The notes below the pieces were generated by a model. It worked only from the letters and a program-made list of their open reading frames with translations. It had not been told where the DNA came from and ran no database searches. From Kiloniellaceae bacterium (GTDB lineage Bacteria > Pseudomonadota > Alphaproteobacteria > Kiloniellales > J153): a stretch of DNA of 64,000 bases. Position numbers and translations under genes: made by a program. Shown in pieces: positions 32,313 through 52,301 of the stretch (position 1 is its first letter; each line of letters opens with the position of its first letter). The stretch is taken from positions 1-64,000 of the forward strand of contig JAJFGO010000076.1 in assembly GCA_021776095.1 (NCBI GenBank), in the 5' to 3' direction.

Positions 32313-32388
32313 AGGCGCGTAGCTCAGTGGCAGAGCACCGCCATTACATGGCGGAGGTCGGAGGTTCGATCCCTTCCCGCGCCTACCA
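32313..32388 (+). tRNA. tRNA-Val (anticodon UAC), integration site of the island
   Basis: A cloverleaf can be drawn: acceptor AGGCGCG/CGCGCCT, D arm GCTC...GAGC, anticodon arm CCGCC-ATTACAT-GGCGG with anticodon TAC (Val), T arm around GGAGG-TTCGATC, and encoded CCA at 32386-32388. The T arm/acceptor junction holds one base more than the standard (CCTTCC instead of five bases), so either the T loop has eight bases or there is a bulge. The same base is present in the second copy of the 3' part at 52253-52301, so it is not a local error. The 3' half forms the left attachment repeat, and the tRNA remains intact at this end. Confidence 0.75.
32340..32388 (+). repeat. attL: left 49-bp direct repeat of the island
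   Basis: The 49 bases from the anticodon stem of tRNA-Val to its CCA end are repeated exactly at 52253-52301. This is the usual outcome of site-specific integration into the 3' end of a tRNA gene, here restoring the complete tRNA at the left junction. Confidence 0.92.
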
Positions 32389-33193: not shown

Positions 33194-33397
33194 TCACCCA
33201 GGTAGCGACTCGCGTTGTTCCCTCAGCGCACGCGCCAAGTCACGCAGGAGCCGCCACGTTCCGCCCTTGAATGCGTTGCGCGCGACTATGGCCTTACCTT
33301 CCGGTGTCCTTGGTCCGGTCGCCTTTTCCCAGGGTCGCCATTGCCGGATTAGCTTGGCCTGCCGCGTCCGCCGTTCCGAAGTCCAGCCGTTCGCCAC
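33194..33397 (-). CDS. Island-associated small basic protein
   Basis: A 67-residue protein rich in Arg and Lys, beginning at GTG 33397 with GGAGG seven bases upstream. The stretch WEKATGPRTPEGKAIVARNA is the recognisable core, and I recall similar proteins in prophages and islands of alphaproteobacteria; the function is unknown. Its first 104 bases overlap, in another frame, the 3' end of the 209-residue gene upstream, and both frames look conserved. A truncated copy of its 3' half occurs at 35208-35303. Confidence 0.65.
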   Translation of the reverse strand: MANGWTSERRTRQAKLIRQWRPWEKATGPRTPEGKAIVARNAFKGGTWRLLRDLARALREQRESLPG

Positions 33398-34088: not shown

Positions 34089-34538
34089 ATGGCAACGTCT
34101 AGGCAGATAACGGGTGAGTTTGGCGAGAAGTTGGTTGTTCGGACCTGTTCCTGCCCAAAGTGCAAGAGGGGCAGGACGTTGAAGCGGCTGCCAAATAATT
34201 TCAAGTGTGCTGATGTCATCTGTGATTTCTGTGGCTACCTGGCGCAGGTCAAAACCGCTAGATCGGCGGATACCAAGCGAGTGCCAAATGTGATTTTGGG
34301 TGCGGCATGGCGACCACAGAAAGAAAGGATGGATGCTGGAATTTATTTTCCTCTGTTCATAGTTTTGGCTGCCCCGAATGGGAAGGCCGCGAGCGTCTTC
34401 TACCTATCTGCGGACTTGCAGAATCCAGAAATGTTTCAGCCAAGAAAGCCATTGTCGCAAAATGCGAAACGGGCGGGATGGCAGGGTTTCTATTGCGATA
34501 TGGACCTCGCAAAAGATTCATTGGTCCAGATTTGCTGA
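34089..34538 (+). CDS. Zinc-ribbon protein resembling DpnI-type nucleases
   Basis: A 149-residue protein. The N-terminal third holds paired cysteines (TCSCPKCKRG and VICDFCGYLAQVKT) that would form a zinc ribbon. Between and after them lies D...QVK (ADVICDFCGYLAQVKT), which resembles a PD-(D/E)xK-type nuclease core with Gln in place of Glu, as in the DpnI/Dam-replacing family layout. The C-terminal half alternates beta strands (YFPLFIVLAAPNG, ASVFYLSADLQ). If a nuclease, it would be a candidate modification-dependent or orphan restriction enzyme. No methyltransferase is adjacent. The assignment is structural guesswork from motifs. Confidence 0.5.
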   Translation: MATSRQITGEFGEKLVVRTCSCPKCKRGRTLKRLPNNFKCADVICDFCGYLAQVKTARSADTKRVPNVILGAAWRPQKERMDAGIYFPLFIVLAAPNGKAASVFYLSADLQNPEMFQPRKPLSQNAKRAGWQGFYCDMDLAKDSLVQIC

Positions 34539-35207: not shown

Positions 35208-35303
35208 TCATGGTGGCAGCAACTTTCGTTGCTCTTTGAGCGCGCGCGCCAGGTCGCGTAGCAGCCGCCACGATCCGCCCCTGTATGCGTTGCGCGCGCC
35301 CCT
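35208..35303 (-). pseudogene. Truncated duplicate of the small basic island protein
   Basis: Translated leftward, this stretch gives ARNAYRGGSWRLLRDLARAL followed by KEQRKLLPP, almost the same as the C-terminus of the protein at 33194-33397 (ARNAFKGGTWRLLRDLARAL). The nucleotide match covers roughly 90 bp with the N-terminal part missing; the frame continues upstream into unrelated sequence. It looks like a leftover of gene duplication or recombination inside the island. Confidence 0.7.
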
Positions 35304-36148: not shown

Positions 36149-36250
36149 ATGGCTACGGGCAAGGCGTGTTTTGTCGGTGACACTACGTCTAATACGGGGC
36201 CTGGCCTGTTCAATTCGCTCGAAGAAGCGCGCTTTGGTCAGTTTGTTTGA
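36149..36250 (+). CDS. Possible 33-residue ORF coupled to the LAGLIDADG gene
   Basis: A short frame starts at ATG 36149, two bases after the previous stop codon, and ends at TGA 36248-36250, which overlaps the ATG of the LAGLIDADG gene (TGATG). The product is not recognised. It may merely carry ribosomes to the downstream start. Confidence 0.25.
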   Translation: MATGKACFVGDTTSNTGPGLFNSLEEARFGQFV

Positions 36251-37431
36251 TGAAAGTGGAAATCGAATATATCGACAAAACCGGCAACCGCCGGACAAGA
36301 TGGTTCCAGGACAACGCCGAGGCGTTTCGGTTCGTTGTCAATCCGCCCAAGGGTGTTGCTGAAATCGTAAATGCACCCGAGGAGTTTCAGCTGAAAGCCC
36401 AGCGGCGTGGGAAAACTAAGGCAACCATTGCTGGACTTCGACACCGCGATCCTGGTTGGGTCTCTGGACCCAATAAATCTCAGCCCGTAATTTCTAGCAA
36501 CTCGATTCAGTTTTCATGGGCGAGGAAAGGTTGTCGTTTATTCGAGTGTTTTAGCAGTGTGGATGAGGCGGCAGCAGCTCTAGTCGAAAGGTATAGCCAA
36601 GGCTGGGCAATCAACACCCTTGCCCGGGAATTTCACCTTCATCGTGACACCATCACGAACTTGCTAGTAGAAAACAATACCCCGATTGATCGGAGGCGAT
36701 TCCGAAAACTGCAAGAGGCAAGAGCCGGTTGGGAAGAGGCGTTTTCAAAGCCTACGGCTTCTGCACTCTACTGGGCCGGCTTTCTGATGGCTGATGGCTC
36801 TATCGTTCGGAGTAAGGGGGAACCTTGTGTCCAATGTCGTATAGGCCTGCGCGATATTGACCACATTCGGGCCTTGTGTGATTTCGTGGGGCGCGGGAAG
36901 CCACAGATGGCGAAGGCTAAAGGTCAAGTACCCCTAGTCGGCTGGCGGGTGATTTCACAGCTGATGGCAAATGATCTAGCTCGGTGGGGGATTTTTCCGG
37001 GCAAGGGCAGATTGAATGACGCTGCACCAAAGGGCCAAGCTCGTATTAGTGTGGATTTCTGGCGAGGGATGATCGATGGTGATGGATCCATTCGGATGTC
37101 CGGCAGGTCGCCGCAAGTTCAATTGACCGGTCGCCGAGGAATTTCTGAGGCATTCATCGAATTTGTAGAAGCCAACCTTAAGTTGCATCTGTTGCGCCGA
37201 TATGATTCCACAACCAAGCGCTATTTACGGAAGCTCCGCATCTACGAGTACCCGGAGGGTGGCGGAACTAAGGTGATTCTGAACGGGCAGAATGCCGTCG
37301 CCCTATGCGAGCTGTTATATTCGGAGGCTTCGGACGGATTGTATCTGCGGCGAAAGCGTGAAGCGGCGATACAGATCACAGGCCAATACCTTGAAAGGCA
37401 AGCGCAGGCGAAGCGAGGAGCATCAGGGTGA
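36250..37431 (+). CDS. LAGLIDADG homing endonuclease
   Basis: A 393-residue protein. The C-terminal ~250 residues hold two LAGLIDADG motifs, LYWAGFLMADGSIV and FWRGMIDGDGSIRM, each with its catalytic Asp, so it is a monomeric two-motif enzyme cutting an asymmetric site of about 20 bp. In front lies a helix-turn-helix-like segment (YSQGWAINTLAREFHLHRDT) and an N-terminal part of unknown role. It is free-standing: no intron or intein splicing blocks flank it. Lower GC content than its neighbours suggests separate acquisition. It starts in a TGATG overlap with a short upstream frame. Confidence 0.88.
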   Translation: MKVEIEYIDKTGNRRTRWFQDNAEAFRFVVNPPKGVAEIVNAPEEFQLKAQRRGKTKATIAGLRHRDPGWVSGPNKSQPVISSNSIQFSWARKGCRLFECFSSVDEAAAALVERYSQGWAINTLAREFHLHRDTITNLLVENNTPIDRRRFRKLQEARAGWEEAFSKPTASALYWAGFLMADGSIVRSKGEPCVQCRIGLRDIDHIRALCDFVGRGKPQMAKAKGQVPLVGWRVISQLMANDLARWGIFPGKGRLNDAAPKGQARISVDFWRGMIDGDGSIRMSGRSPQVQLTGRRGISEAFIEFVEANLKLHLLRRYDSTTKRYLRKLRIYEYPEGGGTKVILNGQNAVALCELLYSEASDGLYLRRKREAAIQITGQYLERQAQAKRGASG

Positions 37432-37474: not shown

Positions 37475-38134
37475 TCAATCATAACCCTCCACAGCGTCAA
37501 AATCTGCGGCAGCTTCGTCAGGCGGGAACACCCGGCGTGCTATGAAAATGCCTATTATCGGTACATCAGGGAAGCGTCCCGAAATGACGTTGTGCATTGC
37601 TCGATAGTGGGCACCTGCTGTCAGAACATCATCAACGATTCCTATAGCTCTTGGCGCGGGCTCCGAAACTGTTTCATTGATCTCGTAAATCTCAACCAAT
37701 TCTTCGACGGTCGGTCGATAGCCACTTTCATGTGCAGCATCATATGAATCTGTCTGGATAACCAAATCCCGCACGTCGATCTGAAAATCTACCGGGATGC
37801 TCTCGCAGATGGTTCGCATTCGAACATCATGCTCGGGATCAGCTTGTTCTTTTGAAGGGGGGATAGGAACGAGTGTTGCTTCCCTAAGCCATTCTGGATT
37901 TAAAACCGCCCCGAGGGCTCGTGAACAATCGCGCATAACGCGTATCTTGTGAGGCCATTGGGCGGTGCCTCTAGTGCTCGGCTTCTTTTTAAGGTTCGAA
38001 ATTAGGCTGTTGGCGCTGCTGTAGTCATAGCGCTTTCCAGATGTGTACTCGACTAAGAAATAGCACTCATCGTCAATTCTAAGATAGAAGTGATCTGATA
38101 TGAGCAACTCGTCAATTCTCTGAAAACGGGGCAC
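37475..38134 (-). CDS. Phosphoribosyltransferase-like protein, coupled to DprA-like gene
   Basis: A 219-residue protein with a type I phosphoribosyltransferase fold in its C-terminal half. The PRPP-binding loop is IGIVDDVLTAGAHYRAM (~170-186), with the two acidic residues and the TAG turn. The middle has TLVPIPPSKEQADPEH, as in ComF-like proteins, where this loop helps bind pyrophosphate. The N-terminal ~60 residues (CYFLVEYTSGKRYDYSSANS) are not the zinc finger of ComF. It begins with GTG one base after the DprA-like gene stops, so the two are made together. Base composition is low in GC compared with the core. The substrate is unknown. Confidence 0.85.
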   Translation of the reverse strand: MPRFQRIDELLISDHFYLRIDDECYFLVEYTSGKRYDYSSANSLISNLKKKPSTRGTAQWPHKIRVMRDCSRALGAVLNPEWLREATLVPIPPSKEQADPEHDVRMRTICESIPVDFQIDVRDLVIQTDSYDAAHESGYRPTVEELVEIYEINETVSEPAPRAIGIVDDVLTAGAHYRAMHNVISGRFPDVPIIGIFIARRVFPPDEAAADFDAVEGYD

Positions 38135-38135
38135 G

Positions 38136-39041
38136 TCAATTTAAGCCATTCCAAATATCTTCGGGCTTACGGACTCGGACGGCACCTTTCTCAACGAACC
38201 GAGCGGGCCAGGTAATATCGCCGCGCTCAAAACAAGAATTAAGAATGAAAAGTTTACGATTTTGATAGAAGGCGGCGCGCGCCTGAATCAGAGAGCCAGA
38301 AGTATCGCTCGCTTCAACTATTATCGTTGCCTGAGTTATTGCACTCATCGTGGCGTTGCGTTCGGGAAAGAAGAGTCGATTTTGCATCGGATTTTGTCGC
38401 GAATAGCGAAGTACCGGCACCTGTGAAATTAGCAGATATTTGTTGGCGATATCCTCTTGTAGCTCCGCATTTTCCTTCGGGTAAATAAACCCTAGAGGTG
38501 TGCCCACTACAGCAATCGTACGTCCCCCGGCTTCTATAGCGGCCTTATGCGCAGCAGTATCAATACCTGACGCCAATCCTGAAACGACAGTGAAACCCTT
38601 CTCTACAAGAGTTCTTGCCAAACGCTGAGTACGAGCAATACCGTCATCGCTTGGCTTACGACTGCCGACGACCGCAATACTAGGCGACTCCGCCAATTCC
38701 CAAGCACCACGATAGTAAAGAAATTCTACGGGATACCTAGCATCTCTAAGTTTCTTAGGATAATCGCCAGCGTGGTGGATGCGAATCCCGAACTGGTGGA
38801 CCCCGGATTTCTTGAGAATCGAAAGGACTTCTTCAGCGCATCGGTTGGCTTGGGCAATCTCCACAAAATCTGACGGCATAGCGGTCGGATCAACCGCAAA
38901 TCTCTCCGCTATGCGCTTAAAAGTCGCTCCTTTTTCAAGCCACAGCGCCTCATACGCGCCCATCTCCAGACGCGGTGAAATGGGGTTGATAAACGGACCG
39001 TTGCCTCCTTGCGAAAGCAACGCTGTTGCTGCAAACGTCAT
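38136..39041 (-). CDS. DprA/Smf-like SLOG-fold protein
   Basis: A 301-residue protein whose central and C-terminal ~200 residues are a DprA-type Rossmann domain: SIAVVGSRKPSDDGIARTQR, then VVSGLASGIDTAAHKAA, which is the DprA signature, and IIVEASDTSGSLIQAR. DprA loads RecA on single-stranded DNA in transformation, and related SLOG domains sense or make nucleotide signals. The N-terminal ~100 residues lack the SAM domain and no C-terminal winged helix follows, unlike housekeeping DprA. The start at 39041 has GGAGGGG directly upstream; 39092 is the alternative. It is the first gene of a two-gene unit with the phosphoribosyltransferase. Confidence 0.88.
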   Translation of the reverse strand: MTFAATALLSQGGNGPFINPISPRLEMGAYEALWLEKGATFKRIAERFAVDPTAMPSDFVEIAQANRCAEEVLSILKKSGVHQFGIRIHHAGDYPKKLRDARYPVEFLYYRGAWELAESPSIAVVGSRKPSDDGIARTQRLARTLVEKGFTVVSGLASGIDTAAHKAAIEAGGRTIAVVGTPLGFIYPKENAELQEDIANKYLLISQVPVLRYSRQNPMQNRLFFPERNATMSAITQATIIVEASDTSGSLIQARAAFYQNRKLFILNSCFERGDITWPARFVEKGAVRVRKPEDIWNGLN

Positions 39042-39252
39042 TTCCCCTCCCGTTGCACAAGCTAACATAAAGTGCCCTGTACGGGTGTCCATATAATATG
39101 CGATGTTCCGTTAATGTTCTATACTGAAATGCCGTAGTGACATTTGCCATGTTGGTCAAGGTCTTGGCCTGCCCCCACGGTCTGGTGCGACCGGATAGCA
39201 TTGAATTCCTTCACCTAGGGCATCCTCAGCACTCCCCTTGGTATTTATAGGT

Positions 39253-39378
39253 GGTCCGCCTCGGTACCGAAGGAGTACCCGAAAACCGCTCTGACGGGTA
39301 CTCCAGCGGACCATAATTCAGGTTCTCGGTACTCAGGTGGACCCGTCAGCCGACGAATATGGTCCGTCTCGGTACCGA
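39253..39378. repeat. Iteron-like GGTCCG-CTCGGTACCGA repeats
   Basis: GGTCCGCCTCGGTACCGA (39253-39270) and GGTCCGTCTCGGTACCGA (39361-39378) are 18-bp direct repeats with one mismatch, 108 bp apart. An inverted GCGGACC is at 39306-39312, and GGTACTC words occur between. The right copy is inside the 3' end of the helix-turn-helix gene at 39333-39842. The arrangement recalls iterons bound by a replication or regulatory protein, or a decayed repetitive protein tail. Confidence 0.55.
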
Positions 39379-39842
39379 GACTCTGTTTTTGCCCACGCTC
39401 GGACCTTCTTGGCAGGAGACTTCCAGTGTTTCCAAGCATGGGCGGCAAGGTGCCCTTGATAGGACTTGTCCGTCACGGCCCAGGTGGTCGCGCGTCGGCC
39501 GTACCATTGGCCGCGCTTGGTCATCTTGATAAAGCCTTTGGCCTCAAGCTCGGCAAACGCGCGCCCGACGGTGCCCTTGCCCAAACCGAGCAACCGGGCG
39601 GCTTCGTCCCAGCTCAGGGATAGCTGACCATTGTTCCGGCCATTGAAACGGCAACGGAGTTCCACCCAGACCTTGAGGGCTGCACCGCTCAGGCTACGCC
39701 ATGCCGGGCTTTGGGCCATGGCGTAGCTAACCGAAAAATACTGCACGGTCTCGTTTCGGCCCGTTGCATTGGGCCGCTTGCCCTTGCGCCCGCTACTCAT
39801 GCGCCGGCCCTTTTCGGCCCAAGAGAAAGAGGCCCGGGTCAC
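39333..39842 (-). CDS. Winged helix-turn-helix protein, Rep/regulator-like
   Basis: A 169-residue DNA-binding protein. The winged helix spans ~50-125 with LSLSWDEAARLLGLGKGTVG as the HTH, then ELEAKGFIKMTKRGQWYG as the wing. The C-terminus is a basic tail with KTESRYRDGPYSSADGST. I recall related island proteins in rhizobia and their kin that end in similar RY-rich tails; the role could be replication initiation or regulation. The GTG start at 39842 has GGGGAGG close upstream; ATG at 39800 is the alternative. It is the last gene of a leftward operon. Confidence 0.7.
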   Translation of the reverse strand: MTRASFSWAEKGRRMSSGRKGKRPNATGRNETVQYFSVSYAMAQSPAWRSLSGAALKVWVELRCRFNGRNNGQLSLSWDEAARLLGLGKGTVGRAFAELEAKGFIKMTKRGQWYGRRATTWAVTDKSYQGHLAAHAWKHWKSPAKKVRAWAKTESRYRDGPYSSADGST

Positions 39843-45139: not shown

Positions 45140-46201
45140 ATGACACGTCTATGGAGGATCGAGGAGGACCGTCTAGCCGAAATCGCCATTCACTCGCCAA
45201 AGAATGAAGCGACAATCGAGGATTGGGTGGCCAAGGACCCGTCGATCCTGGGGCTGAACCTCCTTATCATCGCGCGCCAGCATCCGACCGATTTCGGAGG
45301 CAGGATCGACTTGCTTGGGATCGACCAGGATGGCGATCTAACCCTCATTGAGGCGAAGCGGGACCGCACTCCTCGGGATGTAATCGCGCAAGTTCTAGAT
45401 TACGGGAGCTGGGTACGCGGGCTTTCAACGCCGAAGGTTCATTCAATAGCTCACGCCTATCTAGACAAACCGCTTTCCGAGGCCTTCCACGGACGCTTTG
45501 GGCAGACCATTCCGGAGACACTCAATGCAGCTCACAATCTGCTCATTGTCGCGGGGAGTTTCGATCCTTCTTCCAAACGCATCGTCGAATATCTCGCCGA
45601 AGCGCATGGCCTGAGCATAAACACTGCGTTTTTTACATACTTCAGAGAGGGAGAAAGGGAATACCTTGCCGCTGATTTTTTGCTGGACCAGCAACAGGTT
45701 GTTGAGCGCTCCGAGGCCAAGACAAAGGCGCCCTGGACAGGATTCTACTATGTGAACGCTGGGCATGATCCCGGGGTCCGCGACTGGGAAGATATGCGGC
45801 AATACGGCTTCGTTGCTGCTGGTTATGGGCGTTTCTATTCCATGCGTCTGAACCAGCTCTCCCCCGGCAACCCCATCTTTGTCTATCAGAAGGGCGCTGG
45901 CTATATCGGGCATGGCATCGTCACAGGCGAGGCTGTATTGGCCAAAGAATTCGTAACTGCGGATGGCCATCCTCTTACTGAGGTCGAGCTTCGATCACCA
46001 GGAATATTGCATGATCCAGATGACTCAGAGTTAGCCGATTACGTTGTCGGTGTGGAGTGGAAGAAGACGTTCCCAGTAGTGGACGGTAAATGGTTTGAAG
46101 GCGGCTTTGCTAATCAGAATGTCGTCTGTAAGTTGCGGCACCCAGCCACGCTTGATTTCCTGACCAAGGTCTTCGAGGTCGATATACCCCTCGGCTCTTA
46201 A
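45140..46201 (+). CDS. NucS/DUF91-like nuclease with C-terminal PUA-like domain
   Basis: A 353-residue protein made of two parts. Residues ~1-120 match the RecB-like nuclease core of NucS/DUF91 proteins: the Asp in GGRIDLLGIDQDG and GDLTLIEAKRDRTPRDVIAQ (Glu-x-Lys), followed by a conserved Gln/Tyr helix. Residues ~195-340 look like an EVE/PUA-like domain (GFYYVNAGHDPGVRDWEDMR and NPIFVYQKGAGYIGHGIV), the fold that reads modified bases. A nuclease coupled to a base-reader suggests modification-dependent cutting or guarding of the host. It lies between hsdR and hsdM with 12- and 20-bp spacers, so it belongs to the operon. The function is inferred. Confidence 0.8.
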   Translation: MTRLWRIEEDRLAEIAIHSPKNEATIEDWVAKDPSILGLNLLIIARQHPTDFGGRIDLLGIDQDGDLTLIEAKRDRTPRDVIAQVLDYGSWVRGLSTPKVHSIAHAYLDKPLSEAFHGRFGQTIPETLNAAHNLLIVAGSFDPSSKRIVEYLAEAHGLSINTAFFTYFREGEREYLAADFLLDQQQVVERSEAKTKAPWTGFYYVNAGHDPGVRDWEDMRQYGFVAAGYGRFYSMRLNQLSPGNPIFVYQKGAGYIGHGIVTGEAVLAKEFVTADGHPLTEVELRSPGILHDPDDSELADYVVGVEWKKTFPVVDGKWFEGGFANQNVVCKLRHPATLDFLTKVFEVDIPLGS

Positions 46202-50478: not shown

Positions 50479-50838
50479 TCAATCCGAGCGACGGAATTTC
50501 TCTGGCGAAATCACCTGATCTGACCAAGCCTTCGTGTCTGCCCCGAAATAGGCTCGCAAAACGCCGGGTTCTGGGTAACTGGTCACACACCGGAACGTCC
50601 TGGCGGGTGGCGACCGGCCTCTCTCGTTCAAACTGCTACTGACTATCGCTTCAGCGCTGGCTCCCAAGAAGTGGAGGACAAGCGTGCGCAACAGGTTGAT
50701 ACGCGCACTGTTGCTCAGTCTATGTTTTGGAACATGCTCGTGAAATTTCCGGATGTATATGCCTTCCTTGTATTGCTCGACCACTAGGCAAATTTCGGAA
50801 CGCGTGAGGCTATCGCATAGCTTATGATTTTCGTACAT
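50479..50838 (-). CDS. Small hypothetical protein translationally coupled to the integrase
   Basis: A 119-residue protein starting MYENHKLCDSLTRSEICLVV; mixed charge, no signal peptide, and no domain I recognise. Its ATG overlaps the stop codon of the integrase gene as TGATG (50836-50840), a typical re-initiation arrangement, so it should be produced in fixed ratio to the integrase. A role in recombination or its control is possible but rests only on this coupling. Confidence 0.6.
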   Translation of the reverse strand: MYENHKLCDSLTRSEICLVVEQYKEGIYIRKFHEHVPKHRLSNSARINLLRTLVLHFLGASAEAIVSSSLNERGRSPPARTFRCVTSYPEPGVLRAYFGADTKAWSDQVISPEKFRRSD

Positions 50839-52094
50839 CAATGTGATTTCTTCATCTCAACAATCTCAGCGCCACCATTTCCGGCCTCCATAGCCGCCGC
50901 AATCTGTCCGCTGATGCGGTCCGCCGCCGCGCGGAGCGGGTCATTTGAGAAGTGTGCGTAACGTTGCGTCGTGGCTTGGTTCCGGTGCCCCAGGAGCGCG
51001 CCGATCAGGATCAGGCTATCCCCGGCCCCAGCCGCCACACTGGCGAAGCTGTGGCGCAGGTCATGGAGCCGAACGCCCTCCAGGCCAGCGCGCGCCTTAA
51101 TCCGCCCCCAGGCCTTTGGCAGACCCACGAGGTGCGCGCCCTTCTTTGCGCCCGGCAGAACGAATGGGTTTCCCTCCAGGCGCGGCAGGGACGCTAGCAA
51201 CTCAAGCGCGGGCGCGCCCAGCGGAATGACCTTAGCCCCGGTCTTGCTGTCCGGCAGGCGCAGGCAGACGCGCTCGAAATCGACGTGCTCCCATTTCAGG
51301 GTCAGAATTTCCGACTTGCGCGCCCCGGTCAGGGTCAGGAGCCGGACCGCCGCGGTCGCGCTCGGGTTCTCGCCCTCAGGTTCCATCGCGGTCAGGGTTT
51401 CGCCCAAACGGGTCAGTTCGGCAAAGGACAGGAATCGCTCGCATTTGCGTTCCTTGAACCGCTTCACGCCGCGCACCGGATTGTCCGCCCGTAGGCGCCG
51501 GTCCATTGCGAACGAGAAGATGCCGCCCAAGAGGCTCACGGTGCGCGCGGCTGTGCCCTTGCCGCCCTTCACGATGGCCCGGCCACGTTTCTTGGTCTTT
51601 ATGTCCGTTGCCGTCTTGCCGTCCGCTACGTCTTGCATGAAGCGTTGCACATCGGTTCGTGTCACCGCCCGAACGTGCTTGCGCCCCAGGAGCGGCTTGA
51701 TGTGCCGTTCGATCCGCCCCCGGTCTGTGGCAATGGTGGACGGCTTTTTGGTGGCGCATCCCTCGGCAAGGTAAAGCTCGCAGAGTCCCGCAACGCTCGG
51801 ATCGCGCTTGGCTTCGTCCCTGGCCTCGGCAGGGTCACGCCCGGCCGCCCTCTCTCCCAGGAGTCGGATTGCCTCGGTCCGGGCCCTCTCAGGCGTCCAG
51901 GGGGAGCCGTGGCGGCCGATGCTGATCCAGCGTTGCCGGCCGCCGATGCGGGTTTTCAGCACATAGGTCTTGGCAGCCCGTTGGCAGCGCACGCCAAAGC
52001 CCTTAACCTCGGAATCCCAGACCAACGTACCCGGCTTCAGGCTATCGACGGTCCGTTTCGTAATCCGCTGGGTTGCCCTGCCGTTCGCGCTCAT
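50838..52094 (-). CDS. Tyrosine recombinase, P4-type island integrase
   Basis: A 418-residue integrase. The N-terminal DUF4102-type arm-binding domain (~10-95) includes LVWDSEVKGFGVRCQRAAKT; the core-binding domain follows (~105-200); the catalytic domain has Arg in TGARKSEILTL, HDLRHSF (His-x2-Arg), the GHRNQATTQRYAH block and its nucleophile Tyr. It would recombine attP with the 3' end of tRNA-Val. The gene lies ~160 bp from attR and points inward, with arm-type repeats between the gene and the end. It is complete, so the island may still be mobile. Confidence 0.94.
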   Translation of the reverse strand: MSANGRATQRITKRTVDSLKPGTLVWDSEVKGFGVRCQRAAKTYVLKTRIGGRQRWISIGRHGSPWTPERARTEAIRLLGERAAGRDPAEARDEAKRDPSVAGLCELYLAEGCATKKPSTIATDRGRIERHIKPLLGRKHVRAVTRTDVQRFMQDVADGKTATDIKTKKRGRAIVKGGKGTAARTVSLLGGIFSFAMDRRLRADNPVRGVKRFKERKCERFLSFAELTRLGETLTAMEPEGENPSATAAVRLLTLTGARKSEILTLKWEHVDFERVCLRLPDSKTGAKVIPLGAPALELLASLPRLEGNPFVLPGAKKGAHLVGLPKAWGRIKARAGLEGVRLHDLRHSFASVAAGAGDSLILIGALLGHRNQATTQRYAHFSNDPLRAAADRISGQIAAAMEAGNGGAEIVEMKKSH

Positions 52095-52252: not shown

Positions 52253-52301
52253 GCCATTACATGGCGGAGGTCGGAGGTTCGATCCCTTCCCGCGCCTACC
52301 A
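52253..52301 (+). repeat. attR: right 49-bp direct repeat of the island
   Basis: An exact copy of tRNA-Val from the anticodon stem to CCA (compare 32340-32388). Only the 3' part of the tRNA is present, with unrelated sequence in front, so it is not a functional tRNA gene. Confidence 0.92.

What the first reader, a model, noticed from the sequence alone, without database searches (positions are those of the whole stretch)
37475..39041. Coupled DprA-like and phosphoribosyltransferase genes inside a defence island
The two genes are one base apart (TGA, C, GTG) and differ from housekeeping DprA and ComF: the DprA-like protein lacks the SAM domain and the C-terminal winged helix, and the PRTase lacks the ComF zinc finger. 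They sit on an island with restriction, HEPN and nuclease genes, and are AT-richer than the core. DprA belongs to the SLOG fold, used for nucleotide binding or processing, and PRTases handle PRPP and nucleotides; a pair could form a nucleotide-based immune or conflict module. This function is inference.
Basis: partly seen in the sequence, partly recalled or inferred. Interest (0 to 1): 0.75.

Follow-up and report, generated by a model that had tools for sequence, protein, structure and literature searches.

The report
ShosTA-type phage-defence gene pair
The two coupled genes are a compact form of ShosTA, an already described bacterial toxin-antitoxin defence against phages, carried on a mobile island inserted in a tRNA gene; it is a new occurrence of a known kind rather than a new system.

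Summary
A DprA-like gene (38136-39041, minus strand) and a phosphoribosyltransferase-like gene (37475-38134, minus strand) are one base apart. The DprA-like protein lacks the two accessory domains that the genome's own, separate DprA has. The pair lies on a 19.9-kb island flanked by a perfect 49-bp repeat of a tRNA-Val 3' end, with a tyrosine integrase and a type I restriction operon.

The pair is not new. PADLOC models identify it as ShosA (8.5e-99) and ShosT (4.4e-42). The predicted ShosT fold matches solved ShosT with PRPP-Mg (8zvc) and ComF. ShosTA is a published phage-defence toxin-antitoxin system in which ShosT perturbs purine nucleotides and ShosA binds DNA.

The window pair is a compact subtype: its ShosT (219 aa) lacks the N-terminal HAD domain of the E. 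coli ShosT of known structure (432 aa), and its ShosA forms a separate clade. Whether the compact form works the same way is untested as far as I could read; that is the main open point. Enrichment next to other defence genes was inconclusive.

The parts
38136..39041 (-). shosA: DprA-like antitoxin / sensor gene, 301 aa (start at 39041; an upstream ATG at 39092 is possible)
   Evidence: PADLOC ShosA PDLC03961 8.5e-99; PF02481 9.4e-58, no DprA_N, no DprA_WH; model Z 26.3 to solved ShosA 8zva
37475..38134 (-). shosT: phosphoribosyltransferase-fold toxin / effector gene, 219 aa, GTG start, compact form without HAD domain
   Evidence: PADLOC ShosT PDLC03962 4.4e-42 and no match to PDLC03012; PRPP loop IVDDVLTAGAH with D168, D169, T172, G174 invariant; model Z 12.0 to ShosT-PRPP-Mg 8zvc over chain residues 165-364
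39042..39051 (-). purine-rich ribosome-binding-site-like GGGAGGGGAA before the shosA start
   Evidence: sequence
32313..32388 (+). tRNA-Val(tac), integration target; its last 49 bases (32340-32388) are the left repeat of the island
   Evidence: ARAGORN, Rfam, direct repeat
52253..52301 (+). right 49-bp perfect copy of the tRNA-Val 3' end (att site) closing the island
   Evidence: direct repeat D2, 100%
50838..52094 (-). tyrosine integrase of the island
   Evidence: PF00589 6.1e-19, PF13356 1.6e-11

Best explanation
The pair is a compact ShosTA toxin-antitoxin defence operon carried as cargo of an integrative island. ShosA, a stripped-down DprA (SLOG/Rossmann core that binds DNA), counteracts ShosT. 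When phage replication or takeover of the host changes what ShosA senses, ShosT acts: it uses PRPP to disturb the purine nucleotide pool, causing DNA damage and stopping the infected cell before phages are released. Shown here: identity, gene order, intact PRPP loop, island anatomy, conservation of the pair. Taken from published work on E. coli ShosTA: purine disturbance, DNA damage, antitoxin role, phage defence. Inferred: that the compact form in this genome does the same.
For: PADLOC ShosA and ShosT models. Structure models match ShosA 8zva (Z 26.3, 258 residues) and ShosT 8zvc/8zvd (Z 12.0/11.7, rmsd 3.5), and ComF (Z 12.9). PRPP-loop residues invariant among relatives. Pair adjacency in 22 of 23 relatives, including P2-like Burkholderia phage Mana. 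Separate housekeeping dprA and a comF-like match in the same genome. Published: a DprA-PRTase pair protects against T7 and lambda (PMC9122126); ShosT disturbs purine metabolism, ShosA binds DNA and counteracts it, T7 Gp0.7 is a trigger (PMC12593503 citing Pu et al. 2025).
Against: The ShosT proteins of known structure are the classic subtype, with a HAD domain that this ShosT lacks; the reported pyrophosphatase activity might sit there (inference). Compact ShosA forms its own clade, and whether it is closer to classic ShosA or to housekeeping DprA is not resolved. One relative (L025) has ShosT without a ShosA beside it. No expression, toxicity or phage data exist for this pair.
Confidence: 0.85

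Rival explanations
1. The compact pair is a separate DprA-PRTase system, filed under the ShosTA name but working differently: a single-domain PRTase transfers phosphoribose to some other target (DNA, a base or a protein), and the DprA-like partner was recruited from DprA independently of classic ShosA.
For: Compact and classic ShosA are separate, well-supported groups (100/97 and 100/100); compact ShosT does not match the classic ShosT model PDLC03012 and aligns only to residues 165-364 of solved ShosT; both types sit close together and convergent on four rhizobial plasmids, suggesting they are not redundant.
Against: PADLOC model PDLC03962 matches both types, the gene order is the same, and the PRTase domains share fold and PRPP loop.
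Confidence: 0.1
2. The genes are relocated housekeeping competence genes (dprA and comF) without an immune role.
For: DprA and ComF folds are shared.
Against: The genome has its own full-length dprA and a comF-like match elsewhere; ShosA lies in a group apart from housekeeping DprA; distribution is patchy and on mobile elements.
Confidence: 0.02
3. A stabilisation (addiction) module that keeps the island or plasmid, with phage defence as a side effect or absent.
For: Toxin-antitoxin logic of ShosTA, location on plasmids, phages and an integrative island.
Against: Published protection against phages for a DprA-PRTase pair; the two roles are not exclusive.
Confidence: 0.1

Closest known systems
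ShosTA toxin-antitoxin (E. coli APEC O1; PDB 8zva, 8zvb, 8zvc, 8zvd, also 9vzo, 9w2p, 9w2q)
   Same: DprA-like gene directly followed by a PRTase gene on one strand; same PRTase fold with PRPP loop; accessory, mobile distribution
   Different: Window ShosT is 219 aa and lacks the N-terminal HAD part (solved ShosT 432 aa, aligned only from residue 165); window ShosA is in another group of the tree
DprA-PRTase anti-phage system of P2-like phages (Rousset et al. 2022, PMC9122126)
   Same: Two-gene DprA plus PRTase defence system; relatives of the window pair also occur in a P2-like phage (Burkholderia phage Mana)
   Different: I could not read which subtype was tested; an E. coli record with P2-like portal and terminase genes carries the classic type at that place (L086)
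PsyrTA and RqlHI
   Same: DprA-like antitoxin with a PRTase-domain toxin
   Different: The toxin RqlH is a RecQ-like helicase with a PRTase domain (PMC4670107); PsyrT is likewise helicase-linked (own knowledge); no helicase is fused to or beside the window PRTase; PsyrA model much weaker (4.9e-26)
Housekeeping DprA and ComF
   Same: Core folds
   Different: No DprA_N, no DprA_WH, below the TIGR00732 cut-off; no ComF zinc finger; accessory location

Membership tests
ShosTA | ShosA-type DprA-like protein | tested here: met
   PDLC03961 8.5e-99, 328.6 bits
ShosTA | ShosT-type phosphoribosyltransferase | tested here: met
   PDLC03962 4.4e-42; fold matches 8zvc/8zvd
ShosTA | Adjacent genes, antitoxin first, same strand | tested here: met
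   One base apart; 22 of 23 relatives alike
ShosTA | Intact PRPP-binding loop | tested here: met
   IVDDVLTAGAH; D168, D169, T172, G174 invariant
ShosTA | Toxicity of ShosT neutralised by ShosA; phage protection | not testable with these tools
   Needs bench work
Classic ShosTA subtype | ShosT with N-terminal HAD domain (about 410-432 aa) | tested here: not met
   219 aa, no PDLC03012 match, no HAD match; aligned to 8zvc from residue 165 only
Housekeeping DprA | N-terminal HHH/SAM domain and C-terminal winged helix | tested here: not met
   Absent in window ShosA, present in own-genome DprA; TIGR00732 166.3 bits, cut-off 191.15
ComF | N-terminal four-cysteine zinc finger | tested here: not met
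   Three isolated cysteines, no CxxC (sequence)
PsyrTA / RqlHI | Partner toxin with RecQ-like helicase | tested here: not met
   ShosT is a single PRTase domain; ORFs on either side are a LAGLIDADG-like gene and an HTH gene

The most novel reading that the evidence does not exclude
Compact ShosTA is a mechanistically distinct DprA-PRTase immune system, without the HAD domain, whose PRTase acts on another target than classic ShosT, and which complements classic ShosTA where both are encoded close together.
Probability: 0.1. Interest if true: 0.5.

Novelty: new member of a known kind. Interest (0 to 1): 0.22.

Why it matters
It adds a clean example of ShosTA on a tRNA-integrated island, and it separates a compact subtype (no HAD domain) from the classic one whose structure is known. 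A side-by-side test of the two would show which part of ShosT is the toxin. Otherwise it confirms what defence-system catalogues already list.

Tried and rejected
Empty-site test in the genus: the joined flanks matched only tRNA-like stretches in three relatives, and the two flanking genes searched have no orthologue there at the cut-offs used, so it was uninformative.

Defence-neighbour enrichment: 149 neighbour ORFs of ShosTA loci gave Zorya I, a type II restriction pair, a TOTE/PrimPol primase, PifA, AbiU, DRT and MzaA matches, but 78 control ORFs from six stretches of the same genomes also gave an Azaca operon and others, so with this sample I cannot claim enrichment.

Sequence searches of the PDB with ShosT, alone or as a profile, gave no significant match; only the fold comparison did. 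The primary paper of Pu et al. 2025 is not held, so its content is cited through a review. The tree shows three groups (compact, classic, housekeeping) but, being unrooted, does not say which two are sisters; the tool also warned of long branches and unsettled bootstrap.

Full report
The observation. ORFs 38136-39041 and 37475-38134, both on the minus strand, are intact and one base apart (TGA, C, GTG). Local GC is about 0.505, against mostly 0.60-0.65 outside the island.

Identity. In PADLOC-DB the first protein is ShosA (PDLC03961, 8.5e-99) and the second is ShosT (PDLC03962, 4.4e-42). Pfam gives the DprA core (PF02481) without the N-terminal HHH or winged-helix domains, and nothing for ShosT. 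The genome carries its own DprA, split over two contigs that overlap by 141 identical bases; read together it has all three DprA domains. A comF-like match lies on another contig. So the pair is additional to the housekeeping genes.

Structure. The ShosT model (7 sequences, mean pLDDT 83) finds ShosT with PRPP-Mg (8zvc) as its first Foldseek match, E 1.6e-4. In the second look ComF 7p0h scores Z 12.9 and ShosT 8zvc Z 12.0 over 173 residues, rmsd 3.5, aligned to residues 165-364 of the solved chain; these two are tied. Below them come ordinary PRTases at Z about 8. The ShosA model (6 sequences, pLDDT 84.5) matches DprA 3uqz (Z 26.6), 3maj (26.5) and ShosA 8zva (26.3), which are tied. The PRPP loop IVDDVLTAGAH keeps D168, D169, T172 and G174 in all relatives aligned.

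Two subtypes. A relative in another genome (L032) has a 415-aa ShosT with an N-terminal HAD domain (HAD_2 1.3e-5); it matches PDLC03012 (2.9e-86) and the solved ShosT chains over nearly their whole length. The window ShosT has no PDLC03012 match. I call the window type compact and the other classic. In a tree of 53 DprA proteins, compact ShosA (20 rows, 100/97), classic ShosA (10 rows, 100/100) and housekeeping DprA (22 rows, weak support 78/36) form separate groups. Four rhizobial plasmids carry a compact and a classic pair close together and convergent.

Distribution and pairing. ShosT at E 1e-20 or better is found in 7 of 385 genomes of the class, 3 of 398 drawn from the phylum and 1 of 61 of the order, the window genome included each time. 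Among 23 relatives with a compact ShosT, 22 have ShosA directly upstream on the same strand (20, two more); L025 has none. They include plasmids, Burkholderia phage Mana and Pseudomonas phage Riah, and contigs of Bacteroidota and Bdellovibrionota.

The island. A 49-bp perfect repeat of the tRNA-Val 3' end at 32340-32388 and 52253-52301, with a tyrosine integrase at 50838-52094, delimits 19.9 kb. Cargo includes a type I restriction operon with a PDC-S11 gene and a DpnI-like ORF. Enrichment of defence genes around relatives elsewhere was inconclusive.

Mechanism. Published work says that a DprA-PRTase pair protects against T7 and lambda (PMC9122126), and that ShosT is a phosphoribosyl transferase and pyrophosphatase which disturbs purine metabolism, with DNA duplications, filamentation and death, while ShosA binds DNA and counteracts it, T7 Gp0.7 being a trigger (PMC12593503). 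PMC10732053 lists ShosTA among systems activated by a phage single-stranded DNA-binding protein. I infer the same scheme here; the missing HAD domain is the main reason for caution.

Verdict. The remaining question is whether the compact subtype acts as the classic one does.

Noticed in passing
window 39252-39385: Four copies of a GGTCCGC..GGTACCGA-like motif in alternating orientation between shosA and the HTH gene 39333-39842; looks like an iteron or operator array, perhaps an origin of the island.
   Followed up: partly
window 36247-37431 (+): LAGLIDADG-like ORF (PF14528 6.4e-05) ending 43 bases from the shosT stop, convergent with it.
   Followed up: no
window 34089-34538 (+): DpnI-like catalytic part (PF06044 2.2e-17), 149 aa, without the C-terminal part of the profile.
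   Followed up: no
window 45140-46201 (+): NucS-like / PDC-S11 gene (1.6e-120) placed inside the type I restriction operon, between HsdR and HsdM.
   Followed up: no
window 33201-33284 and 35215-35298: 84-bp repeat, 81% identical, inside the island.
   Followed up: no
L023, L089, L090, and plasmid CP021375.1 (L020): Compact and classic ShosTA pairs close together and convergent on four rhizobial plasmids; in L090 next to a nucleotidyltransferase-patatin operon that looks like CBASS.
   Followed up: partly
L018 2413-4779, L062 7535-9901: TOTE-conflict primase gene convergent with compact ShosTA in E. coli.
   Followed up: no
L088 1769-2996: Classic ShosT annotated as two ORFs (HAD part and PRTase part) on a Bermanella plasmid: split gene or frameshift.
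   Followed up: no
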